DNA from: Actinacidiphila bryophytorum
GTDB lineage: Bacteria; Actinomycetota; Actinomycetes; Streptomycetales; Streptomycetaceae
Assembly (NCBI RefSeq): GCF_016916835.1
Contig: NZ_JAFFIX010000002.1
Location: 186,001 to 250,000 of the forward strand
Reading direction: 5' to 3'
Length of the DNA: 64,000 nt
The notes beneath the pieces are model-generated. The model was not told where the DNA came from, searched no databases, and saw nothing but the letters and a program-made list of their open reading frames with translations. This document shows, piece by piece, positions 37,751 through 54,200 of the stretch; the stretch's first letter is position 1; each line of letters starts with the position of its first letter. A program made the translations under genes and the position numbers.

Positions 37751-38032
37751 TCACCCGCCGATCAGCACGGTCGGGGCGCCCGCCAGGATCGGGGCGCCGC
37801 ACACGGTGATGTCGCCCATCCGGGCGGCGGGCATGCCGCCGATCAGCACCGTCGGACACCCGGGCGGCGCCACGGCGTTGGGCGGGTGCACGGCGGGCGG
37901 CGGGAAGGAGCAGATGTGCGTGGTGCCGACCACGGCCGCGGGCATGCCGCCGATCAGCACGGTCGGTACACCGGGCGGCGCGAGCACACCGGGGTGCCCG
38001 GTCGGGTCGCTGACTCTCGCTGCTGGGGGCAT
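37751..38032 (-). CDS. cis10: eCIS spike tip, PAAR protein
   Basis: A 93-residue PAAR-repeat protein: the repeated PTVLIGGMPAA and three GGMPAAR/GAP units, with histidines and a Cys (GTTHICSF, GDITVCGAP) that can bind the tip metal. It sharpens the VgrG-like spike. Gaps of 18 and 16 bases separate it from gp25 and the spike gene. Confidence 0.93.
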   Translation of the reverse strand: MPPAARVSDPTGHPGVLAPPGVPTVLIGGMPAAVVGTTHICSFPPPAVHPPNAVAPPGCPTVLIGGMPAARMGDITVCGAPILAGAPTVLIGG

Positions 38033-38048: not shown

Positions 38049-39926
38049 TTAGTTGATCTTCACGAGGGCCGCGCTGATCGAGCAGGTCGCACCGCCCTTG
38101 ATCTCGGTGCTGGCACTGCCCTCGACGCCCACGCTGACGCCCTTGACGGCGACCTGCCCCTGCGTCTGCAGCTGCAGCGCGCCCGATCCGCCGTCGACCT
38201 GGACACCGCTGCGGGCCGAGACCTTGACCGAGTCGCCGGTCAACTCCAGCTTCCCGCTGCCCGCGTCGACGCTGACGCCCTGCTCGGCCTTCACCGTGAC
38301 CTTCTGCTTGGCCTCGACCTCCACGGAACCGTCGCTGTTCAGCACGACCTTGGTGGCCGTACGGTCCAGGTGCAGGGTGACCTTGCCGTCGCCTGTGGAC
38401 AGCCGTACGCCCTGCGGGCCGCCGCCCGCCGCGTCGAGCAGCTCCAGCCGGTCGCCCGAACGGTCCACCAGGCTGCGGCGGTTGACCGCGCCGGTGGTGG
38501 AGTCGACGAGCGGGACGTCGTGCGGGGAGGGCCGGTCGACGCCGTTGTAGAGGCTGCCGAGCACGTACGGCTGGTCCACCCGGCCCTGTTCGAAGCCGAC
38601 CAGCACCTCGTCGCCGACCTCGGGGATGAAGACGCCGCCGCCGCCCTTGCCGCCGAGCCCCGCCGTGCGCGCCCAGTCGCTGACGTAGTCGTCCGACAGC
38701 CACGGGAAGGCCAGCCGGACCCTCCCGCGGTCCTCCGGGTCGCGGGTGTCGGTCACCGTGGCGTTGACCAGCCCGCCGACCCGGTCGGCGGCACCCGGAC
38801 CACCGGAGCCGCCGCCGTCGCGCCCGCCGCCGGAGGCCAGCCCGTACAGCGAGCGGTTGGAGCGCCCGCTGACCGTGACCCACGTCTGATAGCCGACGTC
38901 GGGGTCGAAGACGTGCCGGCTCGAACTGATCGTGTATTTCCCCTCGAAGGGCGGCCCGACGTTGGCCAGCGTCACCGCGGTGCCCGCGCGCAGCTTCGGG
39001 ATGCCCATCGCGACCGCGTCCAACTCCGCGAGCGAGCCCGCCAGGTCGCCGGCCAGCGACTGCGCGGCCTGGTCGGCCGCGGCCTGCGTGCCGTACGCGG
39101 TGTCGGTGGCCAGGAAGACCGCATCGCCGAACGGCTGCGCCGCCTGCCCGGGGCTGATGCCCAGCGCCAGCCGGTCACTTGAGCCCGCGGACGTCCGCGA
39201 CACGACCGCGGCCTTCGCCGTGACGTCCCAGCCGCGCACCTCGACCTGCGCGACCTGGTCGGCCGCGGTCACCGCGACCTGGCAGCGCAGCAGGTTCCGC
39301 CCGAACTCCAGGACGTACGGGCTCGCTTCCGGCCGCGTCGCCGTGCTCGGCGCCTTCGCCGCCCTTGCCGGGTCGCGGAAGCAGAAGGTGCCGTCGGCCA
39401 CCGACACCTCGGCGCCCGCCAGGTCGGCCAGCCGGTGCAGGAACTCCCAGTCGCTGACACCGGGTTGCGCCAGGTGCTCGTAGACGGTGCTCGTCGCGTC
39501 GACCGTGCCGACCGGCAGCCCCGCCCGGTGCGCGACCTGTACGGCCACGTCGGACGCCGTCATCTGCCGGTATCCGGCGACCCTGCGGCCGCGCAGGAAG
39601 CGGTGCGAGTGGTCGAGGCCGCGCACCACCGTGAATGTGCCGGTGGCGTCCAGGTCCACTTCGAGTGCGGTGACCTCGCCGGAGACCAGCAGCTCGCGCT
39701 GCGGGTCGTCGCCCGCGGTCGCGTAGATCTTCAGCGGCGAGCCGATGGTCAGCCCGGTCCTGGCGAGCACCTGGTGGTTGGGGTCGCGGAAGCGCAGCAC
39801 GAACAGGTCGGGCAGCTGCACGCTGTCGTCCACGAACCCGGAGACCAGCAGTGCCGCGATGTCCGGCGGCAGCGGCTGCCCGGCCGCCTCCACCGTGAGC
39901 ACGTTCGCGAAGGTCTCCCCCGCCAT
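38049..39926 (-). CDS. cis8: eCIS central spike, VgrG-like
   Basis: A 625-residue spike protein. The gp27-like part (1-370) has FRDPNHQVLARTGLTIGSPLKIYA and the phage D-type HRAGLPVGTVDATS; the gp5-like OB fold (about 385-455) reads RVRLAFPWLSDDYVSDWARTAGLGGKGGGGVFIPEVGDEVLVGFEQG. The C-terminal 150 residues form the repeated beta-helix (VKVSARSGVQVDGGSG, GSASTEIKG). GGAGGGA lies five bases before the ATG. No toxin fused at the C-terminus. Confidence 0.95.
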   Translation of the reverse strand: MAGETFANVLTVEAAGQPLPPDIAALLVSGFVDDSVQLPDLFVLRFRDPNHQVLARTGLTIGSPLKIYATAGDDPQRELLVSGEVTALEVDLDATGTFTVVRGLDHSHRFLRGRRVAGYRQMTASDVAVQVAHRAGLPVGTVDATSTVYEHLAQPGVSDWEFLHRLADLAGAEVSVADGTFCFRDPARAAKAPSTATRPEASPYVLEFGRNLLRCQVAVTAADQVAQVEVRGWDVTAKAAVVSRTSAGSSDRLALGISPGQAAQPFGDAVFLATDTAYGTQAAADQAAQSLAGDLAGSLAELDAVAMGIPKLRAGTAVTLANVGPPFEGKYTISSSRHVFDPDVGYQTWVTVSGRSNRSLYGLASGGGRDGGGSGGPGAADRVGGLVNATVTDTRDPEDRGRVRLAFPWLSDDYVSDWARTAGLGGKGGGGVFIPEVGDEVLVGFEQGRVDQPYVLGSLYNGVDRPSPHDVPLVDSTTGAVNRRSLVDRSGDRLELLDAAGGGPQGVRLSTGDGKVTLHLDRTATKVVLNSDGSVEVEAKQKVTVKAEQGVSVDAGSGKLELTGDSVKVSARSGVQVDGGSGALQLQTQGQVAVKGVSVGVEGSASTEIKGGATCSISAALVKIN

Positions 39927-39980: not shown

Positions 39981-40745
39981 TCAGGTGGTGATCTCGTCGG
40001 CGCCGGGCAGCAGCAGGGAGCGGCCCGGCGTCAGGCGCATCGGGTCGTCGATGCCGTTCGCCTCGGCGATGTCCCGCCACGCGGCCGGGTCGCCGTACTC
40101 GCGGAAGGCCAGCATCGGCAGGGTGTCGCCGTCCACCAGCCGGTGCACCCGGCGTGCGGTGAGCGCGCCCGACGTCGGGTTCTGGCCCGGCAGTTGGGAC
40201 GCCAGCTCCTCGATGGTCACCTGGCACACCGCCCTGATCGGCAGCCCGCCCGCGGTGAACAGCGTGTATTTGGCCTGCACTTGGCTGATGTAGCCGACGA
40301 AGCCGGTCAGCCCGCCCCAGTGGAAGATCACGAAGGGCGGGGTGCCCTTCTTCTTGTCCTGCGTCTGGTCGGTCGGCACGCAGCAGGAGAAGAGCTGCTC
40401 GACGGTCTTGACGACCTTGTCGCTCTGCGCGTCGGTCGCGTCGAAGAACATCTCCAGGGTGAGCTTGGAGGGTTCGGGACCCGTGTACTCGGCGGGACCC
40501 GCCCGGCTCGCCCCGCGGGCGGTCTTGCGCTCCCACTTCGCCGACTTCGCGAGCGTCAGTTCCTTGGGGTTGAACTGGAAGTCCACCCGGCCCAGTTGCG
40601 GCCCCGGCGTCCCGGTGCCGCCGTCGGGCGGCGGCTGGCGCAGCTCCAGGTACGCCCGCTCCAGCTTGGGCCGCGCCCCTGCGGCCGAACCCGCAGCGGG
40701 CGGGGCGGCGGCCGAGAAGGCGACAGGTGAGGACGGTGGCGGCAT
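39981..40745 (-). CDS. cis7: eCIS LysM baseplate hub protein
   Basis: A 254-residue protein. The N-terminal core FQFNPKELTLAKSAKW with LEMFFDATDA and FHWGGLTGFVGYISQV matches the contractile injection hub family (Afp7). The C-terminal 55 residues are a LysM domain (YGDPAAWRDIAEANGIDDPMRLTPGRSLLLP), which in phages binds peptidoglycan or the hub. ATG 40745 has GAAGGAG eight bases upstream. Confidence 0.93.
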   Translation of the reverse strand: MPPPSSPVAFSAAAPPAAGSAAGARPKLERAYLELRQPPPDGGTGTPGPQLGRVDFQFNPKELTLAKSAKWERKTARGASRAGPAEYTGPEPSKLTLEMFFDATDAQSDKVVKTVEQLFSCCVPTDQTQDKKKGTPPFVIFHWGGLTGFVGYISQVQAKYTLFTAGGLPIRAVCQVTIEELASQLPGQNPTSGALTARRVHRLVDGDTLPMLAFREYGDPAAWRDIAEANGIDDPMRLTPGRSLLLPGADEITT

Positions 40746-40809: not shown

Positions 40810-41250
40810 TCAGTCGGCGGCGAGGAAGCCGTGGTGGGCGATCTCCAGGGTCTCGGTGGCCACCTTCGGGGTGTCCACGCTCAGCGACGGCCCCTGCCAG
40901 CGCACCGGCACGACGTCCATCAGGCTCCAGCGGGCGACGACCGTCCCGTCCACCGTCATCGCGCTGATGTGCCCGGTCTTGCGGGTCACCCCCGCCACCA
41001 TGCTGGCGATCCACCTGGTCACCTTCTCGGTGTCCTTGGTGATCGGCCGAGTGAGCTTGATGTTCGAGAACTTGATACGGGACGGCAGTTGCCACACGTA
41101 GCCGTTGTTGCCGCCCTCCTCGCGCTGCTCCAGCACGACCTCGCACCCCAGGCCCTCACAGCTGTTGAACGCGCCCAGGTCGAAGTCGTCGATCTCGACG
41201 ACGAAGCAGACGCTGACCGCCGGGTCGGCGGCGGCTGCGGGGGAGGCCAT
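40810..41250 (-). CDS. cis1b: eCIS second tail tube / tube initiator protein
   Basis: A 146-residue protein of the T4-like tail tube fold: VSVCFVVEIDDFDLGAFNSCEGLGCEVVLEQREEGG is the tube-family N-terminus, followed by KLTRPITKDTEKVTRWIASM. It is clearly a paralogue of the tube gene at 44975 but sits next to the LysM hub, the usual place of the tube initiator (Afp5/Afp6 role). GAGGAG lies six bases before the ATG. Confidence 0.88.
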   Translation of the reverse strand: MASPAAAADPAVSVCFVVEIDDFDLGAFNSCEGLGCEVVLEQREEGGNNGYVWQLPSRIKFSNIKLTRPITKDTEKVTRWIASMVAGVTRKTGHISAMTVDGTVVARWSLMDVVPVRWQGPSLSVDTPKVATETLEIAHHGFLAAD

Positions 41251-41305: not shown

Positions 41306-44300
41306 TCAGTGGCGTGAGTCGAGGCGCATGCCCGCGCGTTCGCGGTCGAGCCGCAACTCGGCTCTCAACAGCCGCGTGAGCGGGGCGAGGAGGCGGCGCA
41401 CCAGCTCGTCAGTGCTCTCGCCTGCCGCGGCGGGCGGTGGTGCGGCGGCCGGCGGCGCCCCCGGTGACGCTGCCGGCTGCGCCGCGGGCCCGGGCTCACC
41501 CCCCGGGGCGGGCGCCGGTGCCGGTGCGTCGGGCTCGCGCTGGACGGTCGCGGGCGGTGCGAAGACGATCGAGCCGTCGGGCTCCCGGGTGCCGATCCCG
41601 GCGCCGACGGCGAGGTCGCCGGCGTCCCGGGCGGCCACCGCCGTTCCCGACCGCCGCCCCGCGCCGGGCAGTTCGAGCCGCTGGACCGGCAACCCTGCTG
41701 CGTACGGCCCGGGCTCGCCCCCCGGGGCGCCGGGCCCGTCCATCGGCGGCCCCGCCCGGTGCGGCGACGCGGACACCCCCAGCTGCGCGCTCGCGCCGAG
41801 ACGCTGCACGGGGAGTCCGGCCGCATACGGTCCCTGCGCGCCCGCGGCGCCGAGTCCGGACGTCGGCGACCCCGCCGGGTACGGGGACGCGGACCCGCGC
41901 GACTGCGCACTCGCGTTGCCGTCGTCCGGCGCCGACAGCGCCCGGCCCGCGCCGGGGAACCCGAGGCGCTGTACCGGGAGTCCGGCCGCGGACGGTCGCC
42001 GCGTACCCGGATCGCCGAGTCCCGGCACGGCTGTCCCCGCCGCGTGCGAAGCGGCCGAGGTCCCCGGCTGCGGCGGTGTTCCGTGCTCTGCGAGCCGCTG
42101 CACCGACGGCTGTGCGGGCCGCGTCCACACAACGGGTACGACCGCCGTCGCCGCAGACTGCGTCTCCGGCTCCTGCGGAGTGGCCGCCGCCCGCAGTCCG
42201 AGCCCCCGGTCACCGACCAGCGCGACCCGCTGCACGTCCCGGGCCGCCCCGGCCACGGCGGACAGCTCCTGGCGCACGGCGGGTATGCGTACGGGTACGC
42301 CCTCGTCCAGCCGCTGCACGGCCCCGGCGCCGCGCCCGGGCGGATCGGCAGCCGGCTGCCGCTGTACGACCGGCAGCGCGTCCCCTGCCGGGGGCGCCCC
42401 CGCGGCACCGGGGCCAGGCGCCCCCGCCACCTGCCGCTGCACCAGCGGCAATGCGTCACCCACCAGCGGCGCGACCGAAGCGTCGGGGAGGCTTACGGCG
42501 GGCGTCGAGTCCGGGCCGCCCGGCCCGGGAGGCACCGCATCCCCTCCTGAGGGCGCAACCAGGGCATCGAGGCCAGGCCCCTGCGGCATCTCCCGCTGGA
42601 CCAGCGGCACCGCATCACCCACCAGCGGCGCAACCGGAGCGTCGGGGACGCTCACGGGCGGCGTCGAGTCCGGGCCGCCCGGCCCGGCAAGGCCCGGCGC
42701 CGACGTCTGGCGTTGCACCGGCCGAGCCACCGGCCCACCGGGCTCGGCAGAGCGCTGGAGCGGACCGGGCGGGACCACCCCTTCCAGGGGCAGCCCCGGG
42801 ACGCCGGGACCTGGCGCGTCCAGCGGCCCGTCCACCGCCGACGCACGCTGGACCAGCGGCACGGCGTCGCCCGCGAGGGGCGCGACCGGGGTGCTGTGCC
42901 CGGGTGGGTCAGCCGCGTGCCGCTGGACCGGCAGCTGCTCGGCCCCGGCCCGAGGCGGCCCCGAGATGTCGGAACCACGTCCCGGCAGCGGCCCGTCCAG
43001 TGCAGGCTCGCGCTGGACCAGTGGCACCGCGTCACCCGCCGACCGCTCGGACGAGCCGCCCGGCCCGGCGGAGAAGCCGCCATCCCAGCCGGGCGCGGGC
43101 GCGGCCGACGGGGGCAGGGCGGACAGGGGCTCGCCGACGTACCCGGGTCGAGGGCGCCCGCCCTCGACCCGTTGGCGCTGGACCACCGGCGGCACTGCCG
43201 GTAGGGGCGCCCCCAGCCCGAGCGGCCGGGCGGGCGCGGGGAGCCCGGGGGCAGGCGCGGGCTCTGTCGTGGCCTCGGGCGGGGACGCAAGCGCCTGCCC
43301 CACCAGGGGTACGGTCCGCTGGACCGGCGCCGTTGCCGAAGCCGGGGGCGTGAGCGCCGCGGAGGCCGCCGCCGGCTCAGAGAGCGAGGCCCCCTCAGGA
43401 CGCGAGGACGCGGAGGGCGCGGCAGGCGCGAACACCTCGGATGGCGGCACCGCGAATGACAGCGGTACCGGCGCCAGCGGCCGTACCGGCAGGTCGAGGT
43501 CGACCGACCGGGAAGCGGTGAGCCGCGGTTGCGGCGGGGCAGGCCGGACAGGCATCGCGTACGACGATGCGGCGACGCCGGGCGCCGCCACGCCGCCCTC
43601 GCCGCCTCCCCCGACCAGCGGCTGGAAGGCCGACCCGGCATCGGGTCCGGCGACCCCGGGCCGATCGCGTACCGCCCGTGCGTCAGGCGTCACCCCGGGC
43701 AGGTCACCCGCGGCCACGGACCGCTGAAGCACCGACCCGTCGTCCGGCACGCCCACCGGCAGGTCACCCGCAGCCACCGACCGCTGAGCCACCGGCCAAG
43801 CGTTGGGCACGACCACCGGCAGATCACCCGCCAGGGACGGCTGGCCCACGGACCCGGCATCGCCCGCCGCCACGGACCCCTGACCCACCGACCCGGCGTC
43901 GCCCGCCGCCTGCGTCCGCTGTACTGGCAGCCCGGCGCCCGGCGCACCCGGCGCCCCCGGTGGAAGCTCCGACGCAGCACCAGGCGCGGCCAACTCGTCC
44001 ACCTGCACCACCTCGGCCACGTCCGAGATGAGCCCCGAGGGGGCCGTCGGGGTCACCGCGTGGCCCAACTCCCCTCCCAGGGAAGGGTTCTGCCACGCGC
44101 CGAGGCCCGCCGCGAAGGCGTCGGGGGTCGAGACCAGCGAGGGAGCCCCGAAGGTCAGCCGCTGCGCGGCGAGTTGGCGCCACTCCCCCCGCGGGGGCGC
44201 GGGCGCGACCGCCGGAGCGGGCACCGCACCAGACGCGACAGGCCCACCGGACACGGCCGCCGCGGCAGCGGCAGGTGCGGGCGGCGACGGCGGTGCCGTG

Positions 44301-44335
44301 CCGCCACGGCGCCCCTTCCCCCGGCGTCCGAACAC
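41306..44335 (-). CDS. 1009-residue disordered protein with repeated VQR motifs, in the eCIS operon
   Basis: A very long Pro/Ala/Gly/Val-rich protein with no folded domain over residues 30-960. The tripeptide VQR occurs 17 times (LPVQR, PLVQR, VVQR; three further VAQR, VLQR, PLQR variants) with spacers of about 20-70 residues, and longer units such as GDAVPLVQRE and PYAAGLPVQRL repeat. The N-terminus (MFGRRGKGRRGG) is basic. The last 36 residues (ESTDELVRRLLAPLTRLLRAELRLDRERAG) are a probable amphipathic helix, likely the only structured part. It lies between the 51-residue gene and the second tube gene in one operon. VQR also appears in the DUF4157 protein (RVVQRE). Tape measure, cargo adapter or a cargo itself are all possible. 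GTG start at 44335, four bases after the upstream stop. Confidence 0.8.
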   Translation of the reverse strand: MFGRRGKGRRGGTAPPSPPAPAAAAAAVSGGPVASGAVPAPAVAPAPPRGEWRQLAAQRLTFGAPSLVSTPDAFAAGLGAWQNPSLGGELGHAVTPTAPSGLISDVAEVVQVDELAAPGAASELPPGAPGAPGAGLPVQRTQAAGDAGSVGQGSVAAGDAGSVGQPSLAGDLPVVVPNAWPVAQRSVAAGDLPVGVPDDGSVLQRSVAAGDLPGVTPDARAVRDRPGVAGPDAGSAFQPLVGGGGEGGVAAPGVAASSYAMPVRPAPPQPRLTASRSVDLDLPVRPLAPVPLSFAVPPSEVFAPAAPSASSRPEGASLSEPAAASAALTPPASATAPVQRTVPLVGQALASPPEATTEPAPAPGLPAPARPLGLGAPLPAVPPVVQRQRVEGGRPRPGYVGEPLSALPPSAAPAPGWDGGFSAGPGGSSERSAGDAVPLVQREPALDGPLPGRGSDISGPPRAGAEQLPVQRHAADPPGHSTPVAPLAGDAVPLVQRASAVDGPLDAPGPGVPGLPLEGVVPPGPLQRSAEPGGPVARPVQRQTSAPGLAGPGGPDSTPPVSVPDAPVAPLVGDAVPLVQREMPQGPGLDALVAPSGGDAVPPGPGGPDSTPAVSLPDASVAPLVGDALPLVQRQVAGAPGPGAAGAPPAGDALPVVQRQPAADPPGRGAGAVQRLDEGVPVRIPAVRQELSAVAGAARDVQRVALVGDRGLGLRAAATPQEPETQSAATAVVPVVWTRPAQPSVQRLAEHGTPPQPGTSAASHAAGTAVPGLGDPGTRRPSAAGLPVQRLGFPGAGRALSAPDDGNASAQSRGSASPYPAGSPTSGLGAAGAQGPYAAGLPVQRLGASAQLGVSASPHRAGPPMDGPGAPGGEPGPYAAGLPVQRLELPGAGRRSGTAVAARDAGDLAVGAGIGTREPDGSIVFAPPATVQREPDAPAPAPAPGGEPGPAAQPAASPGAPPAAAPPPAAAGESTDELVRRLLAPLTRLLRAELRLDRERAGMRLDSRH

Positions 44336-44338
44336 CGC

Positions 44339-44494
44339 TCACCGCCCCCCGGCCAGCTGGTTGAGGCGGGCGATCTGGGCGACGTAGCGGCGGCGTTCGG
44401 CGTGTTCGAGGTCGAGGATCGTGTCGAGCGGCCAGTGGAAGTGGTAGGCGACGTACGCGACGTCCTCGTAGAGCCGGTCGGCCGCGTACGTCAC
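44339..44494 (-). CDS. 51-residue eCIS protein, DUF6760-like
   Basis: A short gene that a length filter misses. GTG 44494 overlaps the upstream stop as GTGA. The protein reads TYAADRLYEDVAYVAYHFHW, then LDTILDLEHAERRRYVAQ, ending in NQLAGGR. The Tyr/His-rich start and the LDLEHAERRR helix match the small DUF6760 proteins coded in Streptomyces eCIS loci. A role in assembly or chaperoning is inferred from its conserved position between the CxxC protein and the VQR protein; the family name is from memory. Confidence 0.8.
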   Translation of the reverse strand: MTYAADRLYEDVAYVAYHFHWPLDTILDLEHAERRRYVAQIARLNQLAGGR

Positions 44495-44967
44495 GATTCC
44501 CCCAGGCGCTCACCCGCCAGGTCGACCGCGAAGGCGGTGGCGCAGGCGGGGCAGGTCACCTCGGCCCGGGTGTGGCCCTCGGCGTTGATGCGGCGGTAGA
44601 AGTCCTGGAGGAAGGCCAGGTCGGAGGCGAACATGTCCTCGATGACGCCCGCGTGGACCTCGCGCAGGGTGCCGAGCCGCACCACGACCCGGCCGAGCAG
44701 CACCACCGACAGGTACGCGGGGTTCTCGCGCACGCGGTCGTCCCGCAGCGGGACGAGTTCGTCGCGTGCGGTGGACAGCCGCATCACGCCGTCGCGGTGG
44801 ACCTGCCCGGACTCGTCGACGTATCCGCGGGGCAGCCGGAAGCCGAACTCGGTCCGCATGACCTCGGCTTCGCCGCCCGCGTCCGCGCGCGCGGACACCT
44901 CCGGCTCCGCAGCCGGCGACGGAGCCGGTGCCGCGGCCTCCGGCTGCGCGATGATCTGGCGCCGCAT
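44491..44967 (-). CDS. eCIS conserved protein with CxxC pair
   Basis: A 158-residue protein. After a Pro/Ala/Glu linker, the core reads FRLPRGYVDESGQVHRDGVMRL, ELVPLRDDRVRENPAYLSVVLLGRVV and FLQDFYRRINAEGH, followed by a C-terminal CPAC zinc-like pair with DLAG. This resembles phage tail assembly chaperone-like proteins found just after the tube gene in eCIS loci. The start is ATG 44967 (GAGGC upstream); TTG 44982 overlaps the tube stop and is an alternative. The stop overlaps the next GTG. Confidence 0.75.
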   Translation of the reverse strand: MRRQIIAQPEAAAPAPSPAAEPEVSARADAGGEAEVMRTEFGFRLPRGYVDESGQVHRDGVMRLSTARDELVPLRDDRVRENPAYLSVVLLGRVVVRLGTLREVHAGVIEDMFASDLAFLQDFYRRINAEGHTRAEVTCPACATAFAVDLAGERLGES

Positions 44968-44974
44968 CAGTGCC

Positions 44975-45418
44975 TCACGCAACGTCCATCGACTCGTAGG
45001 TCAGTACGACCTTCTCCGTGAGCACACTGGTGTCGCCCGCCTTGAGCGAGCCGATCTCCAGGCTCTTGGGCCACGCGTTCACCAGCGTGTAGCGCTTGAT
45101 CGCGTTGCCCTCGTAGTCGAAGACGATGATCGCGCCGCCCTTGCGGGAGTCGCCCATCTTGCCGAACCGCGAGTCCTTGATCCACTTCTCGAAGCTCTGG
45201 TCGGCGGTGAGGCCGCGGGTCAGGGTGACCTCGCCCGCCTTGGGGCGGCCCGGCAGCTTCTTGATGACGTACTTGCCGTCGCTGGTGTTCTGCTTCAGCT
45301 CGATGACGTCCTGCTCCATCTTCAGGCCGGTCACCTCGGTGATCTGCTTGATCACGACGCCGTCGAACTCCAGGCCGAAGGAGTGCCCTACCGAGGTGTC
45401 GAGGTCGGGGAGTGCCAT
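44975..45418 (-). CDS. cis1a: eCIS inner tube protein
   Basis: A 147-residue tail tube protein: GHSFGLEFDGVVIKQITEVTGLKMEQDVIELKQNTSDGKYVIKKLPGRPKAGEVTLTRGLT is a textbook T4 gp19/Hcp-like sequence, with KWIKDSRFG and a conserved C-terminal strand. Hexamer rings of this protein stack to make the inner tube. It follows the sheath gene by 35 bases in the same operon, as in all eCIS loci. Confidence 0.96.
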   Translation of the reverse strand: MALPDLDTSVGHSFGLEFDGVVIKQITEVTGLKMEQDVIELKQNTSDGKYVIKKLPGRPKAGEVTLTRGLTADQSFEKWIKDSRFGKMGDSRKGGAIIVFDYEGNAIKRYTLVNAWPKSLEIGSLKAGDTSVLTEKVVLTYESMDVA

Positions 45419-45453: not shown

Positions 45454-47028
<1,575 letters not shown>

Positions 47029-47169
47029 CCTCGGTCCTCCCCTGGGACAGCGCTGGCCCGCCCAAGCGTGCCGCCCGCCTCCCGCGGGGGGCACGGCCGC
47101 CAGGACGGCCCCGGGGGAATGCCCTGCTGCCCCTTCGGGCAGTTGCCCCGCCGCTGGTCGCGCACCGGG

Positions 47170-47349
47170 TCAGCCGGCCTCCAGCCGCTGTGCGGTGACC
47201 ATACGGGCCACCGCCGCGTTCCCCGCCTGCGTCTGGAGGCGCTGGAGGGCTCCAACGCCTCGTGCTGTCCTGGGAGTCGCGCTGCGCGCGCGTACGGCCG
47301 GCTGCTCCGCGGCCTTCCTGGGCGGGGCCGGGCGGCCCACCCCGGTCAT
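47170..47349 (-). CDS. 59-residue leader-like peptide with LQR...GNAAVA motif
   Basis: ATG 47349 overlaps the DUF4157 stop as ATGA; the frame ends with TGA at 47170. The protein is a basic N-terminal stretch followed by ALQRLQTQAGNAAVARMVTAQR. The motif LQR(x6)GNAAVARM is the same one found at the N-terminus of the neighbouring DUF4157 protein (LQRTLGNGAVAAM) and in the leaders of eCIS cargo proteins. Here it stands almost alone, without a cargo domain. It may be a solo leader, a competitor or the remnant of a cargo gene. Confidence 0.65.
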   Translation of the reverse strand: MTGVGRPAPPRKAAEQPAVRARSATPRTARGVGALQRLQTQAGNAAVARMVTAQRLEAG

Positions 47350-47954
47350 TCCGCCGGGGCCTCTTCCTCGACCGGCTCCTCCTCGCGCTGCACCACCCGT
47401 GCCGCCGTCGCCGCCGCCTCCTGCTCGAAACGGTCCGACGGGTCGCTCACCCGCACCCCGCCGCCCGCCTCCGTCCCCTCCACGGGGCCGCTGCGCTGCT
47501 GCACCACATGCGTCAGCTCGTGCGCCAGCGTCGTACGGCCCTGGTGGGAGCCGGGGTCGTACGCGTCCCGCTGGAAGACGACATGCGAACCCACCGTGTA
47601 CGCGTGGGCGTTCACCGCCTGCGCCGACTCGTGGGCCGCCGCGTCCGTATGGACCCGCACATCGCCGAAGTCCGCGCCCAGGCGCGCTTCCATGTCGCCG
47701 CGGACCTCGGGCTCCAGGGGGCTCCCGCCCCCGCCGACCACCGCGTGCACCGGGGACTCCTCCTCGGCCATCGCGGCCACCGCGCCGTTGCCCAGCGTGC
47801 GCTGCAGGCGCAGCCAGCCGGCTGAGCCCAGCACGTCCGCGCGGCCGCTTGCGGCCGCCTTCGCCAGCAACGCGTCCGGGGCCGCGCCCCTTTCCGCCTG
47901 CCGTAGAGCCGACGGCTCGCCGTCGGCACCCTGCTCGTGCTCGTGCCCGCGCAT
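47346..47954 (-). CDS. eCIS core DUF4157 protein (HELTHVVQQ)
   Basis: A 202-residue protein. The leader region has LQRTLGNGAVAAM (about 50-63). The DUF4157 domain (about 78-160) reads MEARLGADFGDVRVHTD, AAHESAQAVNAHAYTVGSHVVF and HELTHVVQQRSG, in which HExxH suggests a metal-peptidase-like fold. The tail holds RVVQREEEPVEEEAPAE, an acidic end with one VQR. DUF4157 domains are typical of eCIS loci, alone or fused to toxins; here it is short and has no toxin domain. ATG 47954 with GGAGG upstream. Confidence 0.88.
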   Translation of the reverse strand: MRGHEHEQGADGEPSALRQAERGAAPDALLAKAAASGRADVLGSAGWLRLQRTLGNGAVAAMAEEESPVHAVVGGGGSPLEPEVRGDMEARLGADFGDVRVHTDAAAHESAQAVNAHAYTVGSHVVFQRDAYDPGSHQGRTTLAHELTHVVQQRSGPVEGTEAGGGVRVSDPSDRFEQEAAATAARVVQREEEPVEEEAPAE

Positions 47955-48431: not shown

Positions 48432-50567
48432 CTACGTCCCCCCGCCCGGGGGGAGGGCGAAGGACATGTACGGGCCGAACTCGTTCGGGAGGCACAAGCG
48501 CCCGAGTTTGCGGTATTCACGGGCCACGGCCGCAACGAGTTGCGGCATCCCGATGCCGCCCCCACCCTCGGCGGCAAGGTAAGCCGCGGTCACCGCGGCA
48601 GAGCGTATGTCGCCGCCGGCGAGCTCGAACGCCCGCCCGCAGAAGCCGAGGTCGAGATCGGGACCGCGCGGAACCGCGCGGCCCAGGCACCGGTCCCACA
48701 GCGCGATCCGCTGCTCCGCTTCTGGCAGCGGGAAGTCCACGACGAGGTCGAGCCGCCTGGTGAAGGCCTCGTCGAGGTTGGCGCGGAGGTTGGTGGCGAG
48801 GACGGCGAGGCCGTCGAAGGACTCCATCCGCTGCAACAGATACGCGGATTCGACGTTCGCGTACCGGTCGTGCGCGTCCTTGACCTCCGACCGCTTCCCG
48901 AAGACGGCGTCGGCTTCGTCGAAGAGGAGGACGGCGTTGACGCCGGCGGCTTCGGTGAAGATGCGTTCGAGGTTCTTCTCGGTCTCGCCGACGTATTTGT
49001 CGACCACGGTGGCGAGGTCGACGGTGTAGAGGTCGAGTCCGAGCGCGCCGGCGATGACTTCCGCGGACATGGTCTTGCCGGTGCCGGAGTCGCCGGCGAA
49101 GAGGGCCATGACGCCGCGGCCTCGGCCGCCGCCCGGCCGCATGTTCCAGTCGCCGAGGACACGGTCGCGGTGCCTGGCGCGGGCGGCGAGTTCGTGGAGG
49201 CGGGCGAGGACGGCCGGGGGGAGGACGAGGTCGTCCCAGCCGACGGCGGGTTCGATGCGGCGGGCGAGGCGTTCGAGGCCCGAGGTGTTCTGGGCGCGGG
49301 CGCCGTGCAGGAGGTGGGCGTCGGTGAGGGGGCCGCCGGAGAGCAGGGCTTGCTGGTGGGCGGTGCGGGCGGCGCGTTCGACCTGTTCCGGGGAGAGCAG
49401 GAAGACGGCGGCGGCGTCCTGCCGTACGGTGTCGAGCCCGGTGGCGCCTTCGGGGGCGGTGGCGGCGAGTGCGGTGCGCCACAGGGCGGACCGCTGGTCG
49501 GCTCCGATGCGGGCGGCTTCGGCGAGCAGTGGTACGCGGTCGGCCCATGCGGGGTCCCAGGAGGCGCGTCCTGCGAGGACGACGGGGACGGGCAGGGCGG
49601 CCAACTCGCGCAGCAGCGCAGGGTGTTCTGCGAGGGCCTCGACGGGTGCGGCGACCAGCCCGGCCCCGGTGAGTGCGGCTTCGCGTCCTGCGGCGGCGAC
49701 GGCGTCCGCGGGGTCGGTGCGGGCGGCGAGCCGGGTGAGGTCGAGGGCGTGGGCGGTGAGTCCTGCGGCGGCCAGGGCTTGCGCGCCGAGCGATCGGGCG
49801 GCGCCGCCGGGGGTTTCGCGCAGGTAGACGGGGCCGATGCCGCGCCGGATGACGGCGGCGAGGTGCCGTGCCGCGTCGTCGTGGGCGGGTGGTGCGGTGG
49901 CGGGGTGCAGCGGGGTGAGCAGGTCGAGCAGCCCTGGGTCGGGGGTGTCGTCGCCGAGGAGGTGTGCGCTGACCCGGTCGGGTACGCGCAAGGCCCGGCT
50001 GAGCAGCGGGCGTTCCGGGTCCTCGACGACGAGGAGGCCGCGGGCGGTGAGGGGTGCGGCGGGGGAGAGCCGGGCGCGGGCGCCGGCGGAGGCCGGGGGG
50101 ATGCCGCACAGGCCGAGTGCGAGGCCGACGGTGGGGCGGCGGCGGGTGACGTCGTCGTTGAGGTAGCCGTAGAACTGCTCGTAGCGGCGGTCGAGGTCGG
50201 GTGCGAGGCACACCAGGAGGAGTTCGGTGTCGAGCGGTTGCAGCCCGAAGTCCCGTTCCAGTGCGGGCAGTCGCAGGGCGGGGTGGGCGAGGGCGGTCAG
50301 TTCCGCGTCCCGGTCCGGGTCGATCGCGTCGGGTTCCGGTACGGCTGCGGGGTCGTCCAGCAGCCGCTGGACGGCGTCGTCGGTGAGGTAGATGCCGCGG
50401 AAGGGGTCGTCGGGTTCGGGGTCGCCGGCCCTGCGGGCCTGTACGGCTCTGCGGACGCGTTCCTCGACGCGGGCGAGCCGGGCCATGAGGTAGTGCAGTC
50501 CCGGGTCGCCGTCGCCGGGGAGTTCGCCGCCGGCCGGGCTGTCCGCGGCGGTCACCGCCTCGGTCAC
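48432..50567 (-). CDS. cis15: eCIS AAA+ ATPase
   Basis: A 711-residue AAA+ protein. The N-terminal half (1-420) is the variable ATPase-lid/substrate region of the family, including LPALERDFGLQPLDTELLLVCLAPDLDRRYEQFYGYLNDD. The active AAA module (about 470-690) has Walker A GDSGTGKT, Walker B AVLLFDEADAVFGKR and the arginine stretch TRRLDLVVDFPLP. It probably remodels tube or sheath during assembly. GTG 50567 overlaps the DUF4255 stop as GTGA; another GTG is at 50555. Confidence 0.93.
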   Translation of the reverse strand: MTEAVTAADSPAGGELPGDGDPGLHYLMARLARVEERVRRAVQARRAGDPEPDDPFRGIYLTDDAVQRLLDDPAAVPEPDAIDPDRDAELTALAHPALRLPALERDFGLQPLDTELLLVCLAPDLDRRYEQFYGYLNDDVTRRRPTVGLALGLCGIPPASAGARARLSPAAPLTARGLLVVEDPERPLLSRALRVPDRVSAHLLGDDTPDPGLLDLLTPLHPATAPPAHDDAARHLAAVIRRGIGPVYLRETPGGAARSLGAQALAAAGLTAHALDLTRLAARTDPADAVAAAGREAALTGAGLVAAPVEALAEHPALLRELAALPVPVVLAGRASWDPAWADRVPLLAEAARIGADQRSALWRTALAATAPEGATGLDTVRQDAAAVFLLSPEQVERAARTAHQQALLSGGPLTDAHLLHGARAQNTSGLERLARRIEPAVGWDDLVLPPAVLARLHELAARARHRDRVLGDWNMRPGGGRGRGVMALFAGDSGTGKTMSAEVIAGALGLDLYTVDLATVVDKYVGETEKNLERIFTEAAGVNAVLLFDEADAVFGKRSEVKDAHDRYANVESAYLLQRMESFDGLAVLATNLRANLDEAFTRRLDLVVDFPLPEAEQRIALWDRCLGRAVPRGPDLDLGFCGRAFELAGGDIRSAAVTAAYLAAEGGGGIGMPQLVAAVAREYRKLGRLCLPNEFGPYMSFALPPGGGT

Positions 50568-51202
50568 CGCTTGCGCCGTCGCACGGAACCGGCGGTGCTG
50601 CCGGGCTCGGGGCGGGCCGCCGGGGGTGCGGGGTCGTCGCCGATGCGCAGGTCCAGGCCGTCCTCGGAGACGGGCGGGCCCGCGTCGTAGACGGGTGCCG
50701 CGGTGACGGGCGCGCTGACGACGAGGTCGAGCGAGGGCTTCAACTCGCCGCCGAGCGCGGTCCACACGTCGGCGAAGGCACGGTCCTCGGGGGGCGGGAG
50801 GGCGACGGTGACGGGCACCGGCAGCCCGGTGGCGGACAGTTCGGGGCCGAGGCCGTCGCCCGGGAGGGCCTCGTGCCGCAGGAAGCAGCTCAGCAGGGAG
50901 GACAGCAGCCGGTGTTCGTCCTCGGGGCGCTGCGTCCAGGCGCTGATGAGGTAGGAGAGCTTGAAGTAGCGGGGCGGCAGGGTGCGGGAGACGACGGTGC
51001 CGTGCTCGTCGTAGACGTTGTGCCGGCCCCGGGAGCGGCGCCGCAGGTCCTCGCGGATGTCGTAGAGGTAGAGGTTGACGGTGGGGGCGTTGCGCCGGGC
51101 GGCCCAGTCGCGGGTGGGCGCGTCGAAGACGACCTCGATGTCGGGGCTGCCCAGTTCGGCTCTGACCAGGTCGCGCAGGGAGTCGTCCACCTCGTGGATC
51201 AT
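50564..51202 (-). CDS. cis16: eCIS tail terminator/cap, DUF4255 protein
   Basis: A 212-residue protein. The DUF4255 signature is IHEVDDSLRDLVRAELGSPDIEVVFDAPTRDWAARRNAPTVNLYLYDIREDLRRR and YFKLSYLISAWT. DUF4255 proteins cap the tube-sheath end in Afp/PVC (Afp16). The C-terminal 45 residues are a basic/acidic linker ending in RRRKR. It is co-translated with the propeller protein through ATGA at 51199-51202, and with the ATPase through GTGA. Confidence 0.92.
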   Translation of the reverse strand: MIHEVDDSLRDLVRAELGSPDIEVVFDAPTRDWAARRNAPTVNLYLYDIREDLRRRSRGRHNVYDEHGTVVSRTLPPRYFKLSYLISAWTQRPEDEHRLLSSLLSCFLRHEALPGDGLGPELSATGLPVPVTVALPPPEDRAFADVWTALGGELKPSLDLVVSAPVTAAPVYDAGPPVSEDGLDLRIGDDPAPPAARPEPGSTAGSVRRRKR

Positions 51203-54200
51203 CGGCGCCACTTGTAGCCGGACGGCTGCAGCACACCCGGTACGACGAGGTAGTCGGCCCGTACCTCGCCGAAGCGCGGCACCGCGGCCCGGTCGGTGAC
51301 CAGCAACTGGCGCAGCCCCAGGGTGTCCTGGACCAGCACCAGGACGGGCGCGGTGAAGGTGCCGTCGGCGCGGACCCGTACGGGTGCGGCGGCGACGGTG
51401 ACGCCCTGGCTCCACCGCAGTTGCAGCAGCGCGCCCGGCGGGAAGTCGTGGCCGAGTGCCTGCGTGACGGCGCCGGGCGGGCCGACGGCGGGGCTCAGGA
51501 CGACCGCCGGTGCCCGCACGGTGAGCGCGGCGGACGCGGTGTCGTTGCGGGTGTCGGTGTCGCTGCCCGTGGTGCTGAGGTTGGCGGTCACGGTGCCGGT
51601 GAGGGCGCCGGGGGTGGCGAGCGCGACGGTCACGGTGGTGGCGGCGCCCGGGTCGAGGTCCGCGACGGGGCAGCCGGCCGCCGTCGCGCACGTGGAGGGC
51701 GCGTCGGGGATCACTCCCGGCGGCACGGTCAGCGCCAGGGTCAGCCCGGTGGCCCGGCCCTTGCCGAGGTTGCGGACGGTGACACGGGCGGTGGTGCCGG
51801 TGCCGCCGGTGTACGCGGTCGGCGGCGCCAGGGCCAGGCTGACCGCGGGGTCGGCGGGCCTGCGGGGCGGTGCACTGGTCGGCGGTGCCGTCGGCGGGGT
51901 CGTGGGCGGGGTGGTGGGCGGCTCCGTCACCACGACCCGTTCGCGTACGGTCAGCGGCGCGGTCGCGGTGTTGTCGCCGGGGTCCGCGTCGGGCGACGTG
52001 GAGCTGACGGTGCCGACGGCGTTGCCGCTGAGGGGTGTTGCCGAGGTGACGACCCGGGTGACGGTGGCGCTCGCGCCGGGTGCCAGGTCGCCGAGGGCGC
52101 ATGTCGGGTCCGGGCAGCCGGGGTTGGCGCTGGTGACGGTCACGCCGGGCGGCAGCGACAGGGTCAGTTCGACGCCGGTGGCCGGGCCGTCGCCGTGGTT
52201 GGTGACGGTGTAGACGACGGTGGCGGGGTCGCCGGTGAGCACGCTCGGCGGGGTGACGCTCACGGTGACCGCCGGGTCGGACTTCAGCGGGTCGGCCGCG
52301 ACGATGTCCACGGAGGCCGAGTTGTCCTGCGGGAAGCGGTCGAGCAGGCTACCGGCCGCGGCCCCGGTGACGGTGTGGGTGCCGGCGGTGGTGGCCCGTA
52401 CCGTCACCTTGACGTCGACGGTCTCGCCGACGGCGATCTCCTCCAGGTCGCAGTGCAGCGCGCTGCAGGTGCCCTGCGTCGGCACCGGGTCGCCGACCGC
52501 GGTCAGCCCCGCGGGCAGGGTGAAGTCGGCGGTGGCGGCGGGCTCATGGGCGATGCCGTTGTTCGTGACGTGCAGCGTGATGTCGGTCGTCTCACCGGTG
52601 ACCAGCGGCGCGGTCGGCCCGGCGACGGTCACCCCCAGGTCGGCGCTGGCCTGCCAGCTGGGCCGGAACTGGTCGTTGTAGAGCTGGCTCGGCAGCACCT
52701 CGCCGGTTCCGGTGGCCGGGTCGACCACGGCGATCCGCACGCCGTAGCCGTCGCCCTGCCCGACGGCCGCGTCGACGGCCAGCCGGTCGCCGGTCGGTGA
52801 CCAGGCCGCATCGTCGGCGTTGTAGAAGTCCGCGTCGGGGTCGGGACGGGACGGCGAAAGCGGGCAGCCGGCCGTCGCGGGCACCAGGCCGTGGCAGCCG
52901 GCGCCGTCGGTGCGGACCATCAGGACCATGCTGTCGGGGTATCCGAGGGCCGCGGCCTTCGGTGTGACCGGTGCCGCCGTCGCGAGCGGCTGCCGCTTGA
53001 CGACGACACCGCCGCCCGACGGTGAGGGCGAAGGGGACGACGAGGTGGGCGGGTTGGCGTCGCCGCGCCGGGTGAAGGCCACACCGCTGCCGTCGGGCCG
53101 GTAGGCGGGGCGCACGTCCTGCACGCTGCACTCGGAGCCGCAGGCGGCGGCCGTCAGGTCGAACAGATAGTTCCCGCGGTCGGACGCGACCGTCCAGATG
53201 TGCCGGGTCTCCCGGTCGATCGCGAACATCGGCGCGACCGCGGCCGACGTCGTACGAGCCGTTGGACTCCCCGGCTCCGCAGGGGCGATGTTGAGGATCG
53301 ACGAGCAGTGGTGGTAGCGGGAGAAGGCGATCCTGCCGCCGTCGGGCGACCACGCGGGGTCGCGGTCGTCGGTCGTGCACTCGTAGCCGGGACCCATGTC
53401 GGGCGGCCACGGCACCGTGTAGAGCAGCCGGGCCGCCGCGGCGCCGCCGGACACGTCGAAGACGGATATCGCCGACGGTGCGATCCCGCCGTCCGGCAGG
53501 GCTGCTTCGTGCGCGACCGCGAGCTTCGTGCCGTCCGGCGACCAGGCCGCCCTGCCGTACCGGCTCACCGGGTCGAACCCGGTGTTCACCACGACCGCGT
53601 CGTTCAGCCGGTCGGCCGGGCCGAGCATCAGGTACGACTCGTCCCGGGTGCTCTGGCCTGCCGCGGCCCGCGTGGCGGTGAAGACCATCTGGTGCCCGTC
53701 GGGCGAGTACGCGGGCTCGTCCACGTCGTACTCCGCGCCGATCGTGGGCCGCAGCAGCAGCCGGTCGACCGGGGCGTGCGCGCGCACGCCCTCGATCGCG
53801 ATCGTCTCCTGGTCCAACCGGCTGAGCAGCACGGCCGGTTGGCTGCCCGCCGCCGTGTACCAGGTCAGGTCCTCGAACGTCTCGCCCTTGTCCACGCTGT
53901 CCGGCAGCAGCCGGTTGCTCTCGCAGCTGCTGCCGCAGCCGCCCGCCGGGTCGACGAGGTAGGCGTAACCGGACAGGAAGGCCAGCTTCTTGCCGTCGGG
54001 CGACCAGGCGACATCCCGGTCCGCGCCCTGCCAGGCGCCCTGCGCGAGCACCGTGTCCCCACCGCCGCCCGCCGCGGGCGCGACCGCCAGCCGCTGCTGG
54101 TGGTCGGTGGGGTCCACCGTGACGTACGCGATACGGCCGCCGTCCGGCGACCACGCCGGGGTGAAGACGTCGCCGTCCTCGGGCGGCGAGATGCGGTTCG

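What the first reader, a model, noticed from the sequence alone, without database searches (positions are those of the whole stretch)
41306..44335. 1009-residue disordered VQR-repeat protein in the eCIS operon
It carries 17 VQR tripeptides embedded in longer repeats, with no folded core except a C-terminal helix of about 36 residues. The same VQR word occurs in the DUF4157 protein and LQR in the 59-residue peptide, so it may be a recurring binding motif. No other gene here looks like a tape measure; its length and position make it a candidate tape measure, cargo adapter or tube-loaded substrate.
Basis: partly seen in the sequence, partly recalled or inferred. Interest (0 to 1): 0.75.

Follow-up and report, generated by a model that had tools for sequence, protein, structure and literature searches.

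The report
Disordered candidate tape-measure and cargo backbone
In soil bacteria that build syringe-like particles inside their cells, the gene slot where related viruses keep their length-ruler protein holds a long floppy protein studded with the three-residue word VQR, a word that also marks the particle's cargo proteins, so it is a candidate for the ruler that these particles were thought to lack.

Summary
In detail: a 1009-codon ORF on the minus strand with 17 VQR (shuffles average 0.28) and a C-terminal helix. It lies between chaperone-like/DUF6760 genes and the tube-initiator gene, where tailed phages keep the tape measure. It has counterparts in 20 of 20 related CIS loci and in all 54 of 80 named loci whose contig spans the slot (45 intact). 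Both ends are conserved; the middle is unalignable A/P/G-rich sequence. In 62 intact proteins VQR occurs 801 times against 10.3 expected. [VI]QR also marks cargo: 41 of 50 cargo-type leaders have it, and in DUF4157 proteins it recurs 15-16 residues before the domain. Papers say Streptomyces CIS lack a tape-measure gene although S. coelicolor particles are uniform (268 nm); near relatives' slot proteins (1300-1357 aa) give about 2 A per residue. Best reading: a tape-measure-like lumen protein, hub-anchored by its C-terminal helix, doubling as cargo-docking rod. Against: length control untested, indels not compensated, published mass spectrometry silent, S. davawensis particles (~200 nm) do not fit this ratio with Tme as ruler, and a few CIS loci lack a counterpart.

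The parts
41306..44335 (-). slot protein: VQR-rich disordered candidate tape measure, 1009 aa
   Evidence: relatives
44006..44188 (-). conserved N-terminal segment (W..L...QR....F...L..WQNPS....LGHAV...AP.GLI)
   Evidence: invariant F74, L78, W81, P84, V94; nearly invariant W52, N83, S85 among 23 sequences; AlphaFold2 low confidence
41530..43925 (-). disordered A/P/G-rich body carrying the 17 VQR motifs
41312..41413 (-). C-terminal conserved helix, proposed hub anchor
44339..44494 (-). DUF6760 small protein, 51 aa (start overlaps the stop of the upstream gene)
   Evidence: Pfam PF20546 7.9e-12, weak Phage_P2_GpE 0.12
44491..44982 (-). tail-assembly-chaperone-like protein, 163 aa
   Evidence: phrog_508 tail assembly chaperone E 0.0012; some plasmid homologues are annotated 'phage tail assembly protein'
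44975..45418 (-). inner tube protein 1 (gp19 family)
   Evidence: Pfam 3.9e-30
45454..47094 (-). contractile sheath
   Evidence: Pfam Phage_sheath_1 and 1C
47170..47349 (-). 59-aa orphan cargo-type leader with LQRLQTQAGNAAVARMV
47346..47954 (-). small DUF4157/eCIS_core protein (202 aa from the likely ATG), C-terminal VVQREEEP tail; Sle2-like by size and place
   Evidence: Pfam PF13699 1.9e-32
40810..41250 (-). tube initiator (second gp19-family protein), best PDB match 9gtp chain a
39981..40745 (-). CIS_tube/LysM spike-hub adaptor (Cis7-like)
38049..39926 (-). VgrG-like spike (Cis8-like)
   Evidence: read from sequence; not run against a profile library
37751..38032 (-). PAAR-like spike tip, 93 aa
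   Evidence: read from sequence
48432..51236 (-). AAA ATPase (Cis15-like); open frame longer than the gene
   Evidence: Pfam AAA 4.7e-22
50564..51202 (-). cap/terminator (Cis16-like, DUF4255 type), 212 aa
   Evidence: read from sequence

Best explanation
The protein occupies the tape-measure position of a cytoplasmic (subtype IId-like) contractile injection system and probably works as a tape-measure-like lumen protein. Proposed steps: its C-terminal helix packs in the cavity of the C3 spike hub and helps nucleate the particle (inferred, by analogy with the Alg6 plug and phage tape-measure C-termini); the chaperone-like neighbour holds the chain (inferred from gene order); tube rings polymerise around the extended disordered body (inferred); the conserved N-terminal segment meets the cap and stops growth (inferred). 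The [VI]QR motifs along the body are docking sites for the partner that cargo also uses, most likely the DUF4157 domain, so the rod also strings cargo along the tube (inferred). Shown here: position, conserved ends around an unalignable middle (569-1486 aa in all), a C-terminal helix found once per locus, extreme motif enrichment, and sharing of the motif with cargo. Not shown: location in the particle, length control, binding.
For: Gene order sheath-tube1-chaperone-DUF6760-slot-tube initiator-LysM-VgrG matches phage order with the tape measure after the chaperone genes (phage order recalled). Counterparts in 20 of 20 related loci and 54 of 54 uncut named loci. A profile of the C-terminal helix hits 20 of 20, 79 of 80 (the miss, L111, starts about 200 nt before the tube initiator) and 26 of 39 further loci, never more than one ORF per locus, always within 6 residues of the ORF end (the profile was built from many of these proteins). 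VQR 801 observed, 10.3 expected from composition, in 62 of 62 related proteins; LQR 3.6-fold, VRR 2.2-fold, most other single changes near or below expectation; spacing more even than random (CV 0.49 against 0.89). Cargo share the motif. S. coelicolor particles are reported identical in length, 268 nm, 60 tube layers, with no tape-measure gene recognised (PMC12237407, section read; PMC10066040, passages). Slot proteins of the three uncut loci with tube initiators at least 99% identical to S. coelicolor's are 1300-1357 aa: about 0.20 nm and 22 residues per ring, between an alpha helix (0.15 nm) and full extension. Sle2 (DUF4157) bound the N-terminal region of cargo Sle1 and, as a potential interaction, the tube initiator in S. 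lividans (PMC13277306, passages); an ORF in L058 that looks like Sle1 by place and coiled coil (not aligned to it) has four [VIL]QR in its leader.
Against: Published mass spectrometry of S. coelicolor particles names sco4242, sco4256 and sco4251 among unknown proteins, not a product that fits the slot gene (PMC10020575, passages; supplements not seen), and the protein is not in the cryo-EM model. TEM in the same paper gives a mean of 295 nm, so the ratio is uncertain. In S. davawensis, where Tme (2247 aa) holds the comparable place, particles of the Gln2006-stop mutant are about 200 nm (PMC11126660, passages): about 0.1 nm per residue, so the ratio is not general if Tme is that system's ruler. 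Indels between close relatives are not length-compensated (mean |net|/sqrt(sum of squares) 0.96, random about 0.80; 20 pairs, none differing by more than 250 aa by selection); L057 and L058, both 99-100% identical to S. coelicolor's tube initiator, differ by 57 aa. Neither end matches a solved structure. 13 of 39 further loci have no C-terminal-helix match: 3 are cut (L143, L155, L173), five have a long ORF after the tube initiator (L151, L153, L154, L156, L157), two a shorter one there (L161, L168), two are unresolved (L164, L172) and L152 has none between DUF6760 and VgrG. [VI]QR is absent or rare in some slot proteins (S. cadmiisoli 0, L159 0, L179 0, L182 1, L181 2).
Confidence: 0.5

Rival explanations
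1. Cargo adapter only: the protein is a multivalent scaffold that loads DUF4157 cargo through [VI]QR but does not set length; length is set by tube, sheath and cap.
For: Motif shared with cargo; no length compensation; the mismatch of the S. davawensis ratio; one of the two genomes without DUF4157 among 38 searched (G040) has a slot protein with a single [VI]QR.
Against: The other genome without DUF4157 (G347) has 4 [VI]QR in a 759-codon ORF; conserved ends and chaperone-like neighbours fit a structural role; slot proteins with few or no [VI]QR (L142, L179, L181, L182) keep the C-terminal helix.
Confidence: 0.23
2. [VI]QR is a protease cleavage site, not a docking motif: the DUF4157 zincin or another protease cuts there, freeing effector domains from their leaders and chopping the rod during maturation or after firing.
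For: [VIL]QR lies exactly 15 or 16 residues before the DUF4157 domain 36 times over 58 proteins, and 45 of the 58 have one after HExxH, in large proteins often just before the variable part; A or S often follows the R; a role in toxin loading, release or maturation has been suggested for DUF4157 (PMC8213781, passages).
Against: V/I and Q are as strict as R, more than a simple protease needs; [quoted passage not shown] many sites in one rod have no obvious use.
Confidence: 0.16
3. It is an injected effector (Tme-like without a nuclease) that acts on the cell after firing.
For: Comparable gene position to Tme of S. davawensis, a protein with about 70% predicted disorder (PMC11126660, passages).
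Against: No domain found; present in nearly every related locus; the C-terminus, where effector domains usually sit, is the conserved helix.
Confidence: 0.07
4. A spurious or non-expressed ORF produced by G+C-rich repeats.
For: Skewed codon-position G+C and a long opposing ORF; absent from some gene tables (PLSDB table known to be incomplete).
Against: Protein-level conservation of both ends and of VQR in 62 of 62 intact relatives whose middles are largely unalignable.
Confidence: 0.02

Closest known systems
Phage tail tape-measure proteins (lambda gpH, P2 gpT, TP901-1 TMP; recalled)
   Same: Position after tail-assembly-chaperone genes and before hub genes; long single protein; conserved ends and tolerant middle; uniform particle length
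   Different: Classical ones are largely alpha-helical or coiled coil; this one is disordered, Pro/Ala/Gly-rich and carries a repeated word; no profile match found
Tme, tapemeasure-related endonuclease effector of Streptomyces davawensis CIS (PMC11126660, passages)
   Same: Comparable place upstream of the baseplate genes; largest ORF; about 70% predicted disorder
   Different: Tme has an N-terminal DUF4157, transmembrane helices and a C-terminal nuclease; this protein has none and ends in the conserved helix
Sle1/Sle2 cargo pair of Streptomyces lividans SLP (PMC13277306, passages)
   Same: The window has a small DUF4157 protein like Sle2; a Sle1-like leader in L058 shares [VIL]QR
   Different: Sle1 is a coiled-coil membrane-targeted effector encoded upstream of the sheath; the slot protein is a separate gene downstream of tube 1
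Alg6/Afp6 plug of AlgoCIS and related CIS (PMC8894135, passages)
   Same: C-terminal helix proposed to sit in the spike cavity facing the tube; the plug is needed for assembly
   Different: Alg6 is a small separate trimeric protein; the slot C-terminus matches no PDB chain by profile
Afp14/Cis14 tape measure of other eCIS
   Same: Proposed function (length control)
   Different: Different gene position (recalled); reported absent from Streptomyces clusters (PMC10066040, PMC12237407, PMC10286715)

Membership tests
Tail tape-measure proteins | Gene position after tail-assembly-chaperone genes and before tube-initiator/hub genes | tested here: met
   (chaperone match weak, E 0.0012)
Tail tape-measure proteins | Polypeptide length proportional to tail length | tested here: inconclusive
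   One usable point: S. coelicolor 268 nm with near relatives of 1300-1357 aa. S. davawensis Tme (2247 aa, about 200 nm) does not fit the same ratio. D. aquatilis (365 nm) is represented only by congeners with open frames of 1535-1999 codons
Tail tape-measure proteins | Conserved ends, tolerant middle | tested here: met
   binding of the ends untested
Tail tape-measure proteins | Coiled-coil/alpha-helical body | tested here: not met
   A/P/G-rich body, Pro 10.9-21.3% in the 21 proteins
Tail tape-measure proteins | Profile match to a known tape-measure family | tested here: not met
   no Pfam or PHROGs match for the window protein
Tail tape-measure proteins | Presence inside the tube lumen | not testable with these tools
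   not in the published model, nor named in the mass-spectrometry passage seen
Tme-type effectors | N-terminal DUF4157 | tested here: not met
Tme-type effectors | Position in the CIS cluster upstream of the baseplate genes | tested here: met
   Tme position from PMC11126660
DUF4157 effectors | eCIS_core domain with HExxH | tested here: not met

The most novel reading that the evidence does not exclude
[VI]QR is a sequence-level cargo code of actinobacterial cytoplasmic CIS, read by the DUF4157 domain, and the slot protein is an unrecognised ruler made of that code: a disordered rod that sets particle length and on which DUF4157 cargo is threaded inside the tube, so that length and payload capacity are fixed by one gene.
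Probability: 0.28. Interest if true: 0.88.

Novelty: new variant of a known kind. Interest (0 to 1): 0.7.

Why it matters
Papers on the S. coelicolor and S. lividans CIS state that the tape-measure gene is missing, and S. coelicolor particles are reported identical in length; this names a specific, conserved candidate gene and gives length predictions for three other species with measured particles. [quoted passage not shown] here a strict three-residue word marks 41 of 50 cargo-type leaders of this lineage and is repeated along the candidate ruler, which gives a direct handle on loading and on DUF4157, whose role is not settled.

Tried and rejected
Length-compensation test: no stabilising signal; counted against a strict ruler. 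Ring-like spacing of VQR: more even than random but without a fixed period, so one motif per ring is not supported. DUF4157 as the only partner: 36 of 38 genomes searched have DUF4157 proteins; of the two without, one slot protein has 1 [VI]QR, the other 4: inconclusive. Profile searches of both ends in the PDB: none for the C-terminus, two chance-level hits (E 4.6 and 6.3) for the N-terminus. AlphaFold2 of the N-terminal 130 residues: pTM 0.19, not interpreted. Viral-contig scans for a Roseiflexus sheath segment and for tube 1 found no relative.

Rows dropped before counts: of the 21 proteins of the first set (20 loci and the window) 4 were left out of the 62 (L045, L048, L049, L050; frame breaks or N runs); of the 80 named loci 26 are cut by contig ends, 2 have no usable start and 7 are partial, leaving 45. 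The 62 proteins are related, so 801 VQR are not independent events. One search labelled only 9 ORFs as slot because of a composition filter, and its 'other' class holds some effectors; slot density is taken (median 12.3 per 1000 aa). One search left out seven plasmid loci and searched ORFs of 150 codons or more by a pattern, so a few of its 50 leaders may be chance. One search left out the five Deinococcus loci and DUF4157 matches that start late in the profile. In one search some DUF4157 matches are partial, so its before/after counts are lower bounds. L162 is a 100-base placeholder and is not counted among the 39 further loci, 20 of which come mostly from the same family.

Full report
What is there. 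The ORF lies on the minus strand at 41306-44335 and encodes 1009 residues with 17 VQR. Shuffling its composition gives 0.28 VQR on average and at most 4. It has no Pfam or PHROGs match. The locus looks like a complete contractile injection system (CIS) read on the minus strand: cap, AAA ATPase, small DUF4157 protein, a 59-residue orphan leader, sheath, tube 1, a 163-residue protein, DUF6760, the VQR protein, tube initiator, CIS_tube/LysM hub adaptor, VgrG-like spike, PAAR, gp25-like and gp6-like baseplate proteins, a Cis12-like protein and a CisA-like membrane protein (cap, spike, PAAR and the last four were read from sequence, not from a profile). Reading the ORFs showed no other tape-measure candidate.

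Position. The 163-residue protein matches a tail-assembly-chaperone family (phrog_508, E 0.0012), and some plasmid homologues are annotated 'phage tail assembly protein'. DUF6760 has a weak match to P2 gpE (E 0.12). In phages the tape-measure gene follows the chaperone genes (recalled). I call the place between DUF6760 and the tube initiator the slot.

Relatives. All 20 of the first set have a slot protein that matches at least one end of the window's. In the second set 26 of 80 are cut before DUF6760; the other 54 all have the C-terminal end of a slot protein, 45 of them intact and 9 partial, broken by N runs or without a usable start. Intact proteins, 62 in all with 17 of 21 from the first set and the window, are 569-1486 aa long.

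Architecture. The N-terminus (often MGxLDRLRGR, then W..LPPIQR....F...L.TWQNPSF...L.HAV) and the C-terminal helix (DEL..RL...LTRLLRTELR.DRER.GRLRD) are conserved; the middle aligns only between close relatives. AlphaFold2 gives a confident helix at the C-terminus and nothing confident at the N-terminus. A profile of the C-terminal helix, searched against the ORFs of the loci held, hits 20 of 20, 79 of 80 (the miss, L111, begins about 200 nt before the tube initiator), 3 of 9 plasmid loci and 26 of 39 further loci, always one ORF per locus and always at the end of that ORF.

Where it is missing or different. Of the 13 further loci without the profile match, 3 are cut (L143, L155, L173), five have a long ORF after the tube initiator (L151, L153, L154, L156, L157), two a shorter one there (L161, L168), two were not resolved (L164, L172), and L152 has nothing between DUF6760 and VgrG, though its contig starts just upstream. 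Two loci (L147, L179) carry DUF4157 inside the slot protein and keep the helix. In the Deinococcus plasmid loci L134, L139 and L141 the long Pro/Ala-rich protein follows an annotated second tail protein and carries DUF4157 towards its C-terminus; L138 looks alike, but the ORF before it is unannotated. D. grandis L135 is one ORF with an N-terminal tube domain and DUF4157 further on, directly after the sheath. The last residues of these five look like the helix by eye, but only L141 is in the profile list, at E 0.009. In the cyanobacterial plasmid loci L136 and L140 I found no counterpart.

The word. In the bodies of the 62 proteins VQR occurs 801 times against 10.3 expected from composition, IQR 62 against 1.0; all 62 have VQR. 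LQR is 3.6-fold and VRR 2.2-fold; MQR and VQH are 5.5- and 4.7-fold on 3 and 7 copies; most other single changes are near or below expectation. P is favoured before and A or S after. Spacing has a median of 58 residues and is more even than random placement (CV 0.49 against 0.89, lower in 98% of 57 proteins), without a fixed period; the number of [VIL]QR rises with length (Spearman 0.49, n 62). The proteins are related, so these are not independent events. Outside this set counts fall to 0-4 in several slot proteins (S. cadmiisoli 0, L159 0, L179 0, L182 1, L181 2).

The word in cargo. In gene-like ORFs of the loci [VI]QR occurs at 0.43 per 1000 aa in the class 'other', which still holds some effectors, and 4.3 in ORFs classed as DUF4157. 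Of 50 distinct leaders with a pattern for LQxxAGNxAV, 41 have at least one [VI]QR in the next 200 residues, 79 in all against 3.6 in shuffles. Of 20 DUF4157 ORFs taken from places that lie at least about 30 kb from a CIS locus or on another contig, 16 have [VI]QR in the stretch counted, 37 in all against 3.5 expected; other ORFs of the same stretches, all frames, have 0.41 per 1000 aa. Over 58 distinct DUF4157 proteins, 36 [VIL]QR occurrences fall at exactly -16 or -15 from the domain start; 31 of 43 large and 6 of 15 small proteins have one at -20 to -13, and 36 of 43 and 9 of 15 have one after HExxH. The L058 ORF that looks like Sle1 has four [VIL]QR in its leader; related ORFs in the neighbouring loci mostly have one. 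In S. lividans, Sle2 (DUF4157) bound the N-terminal region of Sle1 and, as a potential interaction, the tube initiator (PMC13277306, passages). This makes DUF4157 my first candidate for the partner; the tube lumen, the chaperone-like protein, the ATPase and a protease remain open. Of 38 genomes searched, 36 have DUF4157; the two without have slot proteins with 1 and 4 [VI]QR, which does not decide it.

Length. S. coelicolor particles are 268 nm, identical in length, with 60 tube layers, and the authors note that the tape-measure gene is absent (PMC12237407, section read); two other papers say that a tape-measure gene is absent from Streptomyces clusters (PMC10066040; PMC10286715; passages). 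TEM in another paper gives a mean of 295 nm (PMC10020575, passages). Five loci have tube initiators at least 99% identical to S. coelicolor's; the three uncut ones have slot proteins of 1300, 1356 and 1357 aa (L058, L060, L057), that is 0.198-0.206 nm per residue and about 22 residues per ring at 268 nm. S. coelicolor's own gene was not among the loci returned. With that ratio the window's particle would be about 199-208 nm, and R. castenholzii (217 nm), C. chliarophilus (238 nm) and D. aquatilis (365 nm) particles (PMC12998442, passages) would need 1053-1099, 1154-1205 and 1771-1848 residues. Deinococcus congeners have open frames of 1535-1999 codons, compatible but no test.

Against. Published mass spectrometry names sco4242, sco4256 and sco4251 among unknown proteins and no product that fits the slot gene, which by gene order should be SCO4249 or SCO4250 (inferred; PMC10020575, passages; supplements not seen). 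Particles of an S. davawensis strain with Tme truncated at residue 2006 are about 200 nm (PMC11126660, passages), about 0.1 nm per residue, so no common ratio holds if Tme is the ruler there. Indels between close relatives are not compensated. Some CIS loci have no counterpart (above).

What is known in print. In the held library no paper joins contractile injection with a VQR motif (one unrelated hit) or with DUF6760 (none). The search for contractile injection system, tape measure protein and disordered listed 10 papers, of which passages of two were read. The claim of novelty is limited to these searches. Tme of S. davawensis is the nearest precedent for the position.

Verdict. The protein works like a tape measure by position and anatomy in my best reading; membership is unproven, because the body is not helical, no profile links it to a known family, and length control is untested.

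Noticed in passing
window 47170-47349 (-): A 59-residue ORF is a cargo-type leader (LQRLQTQAGNAAVARMV) without a cargo body, between the DUF4157 gene and the sheath; in the relative L035 a 1421-codon open frame with the same kind of leader lies at the comparable place.
   Followed up: partly
L135:15738-19517: D. grandis pDEGR-1 has one ORF with an N-terminal tail-tube domain, a long Pro/Ala-rich stretch and a DUF4157 domain, directly after the sheath.
   Followed up: partly
L137:14786-18934; L139:17856-23852: The slot ORF of S. clavuligerus pSCL4 is missing from the PLSDB gene table, and the D. aquaticus long ORF is listed only as its last 591 codons; that table is known to be incomplete.
   Followed up: partly
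window 47346-47954 (-); L034, L035, L143-L145, L149, L158, L178: 9 of 15 small DUF4157 proteins carry VQR after the domain, mostly with an acidic tail (for example VVQREEEPVEEE), and 9 of 15 lack the motif near -16 seen in most large ones.
   Followed up: partly
L170, L173 (second CIS loci of G026 and G015): Two relatives carry a further CIS locus with a slot protein (L173 is cut by the contig end).
   Followed up: no
window 33640-34668 (-): Zinc-ribbon, transmembrane and C-terminal domain protein that looks like CisA, after the Cis12-like gene (read from sequence).
   Followed up: no
L161, L168: Two sheath-type ORFs in a row in each of these loci.
   Followed up: no
L152: A CIS locus in which DUF6760, tube initiator, LysM adaptor and VgrG follow each other with no slot protein.
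   Followed up: no
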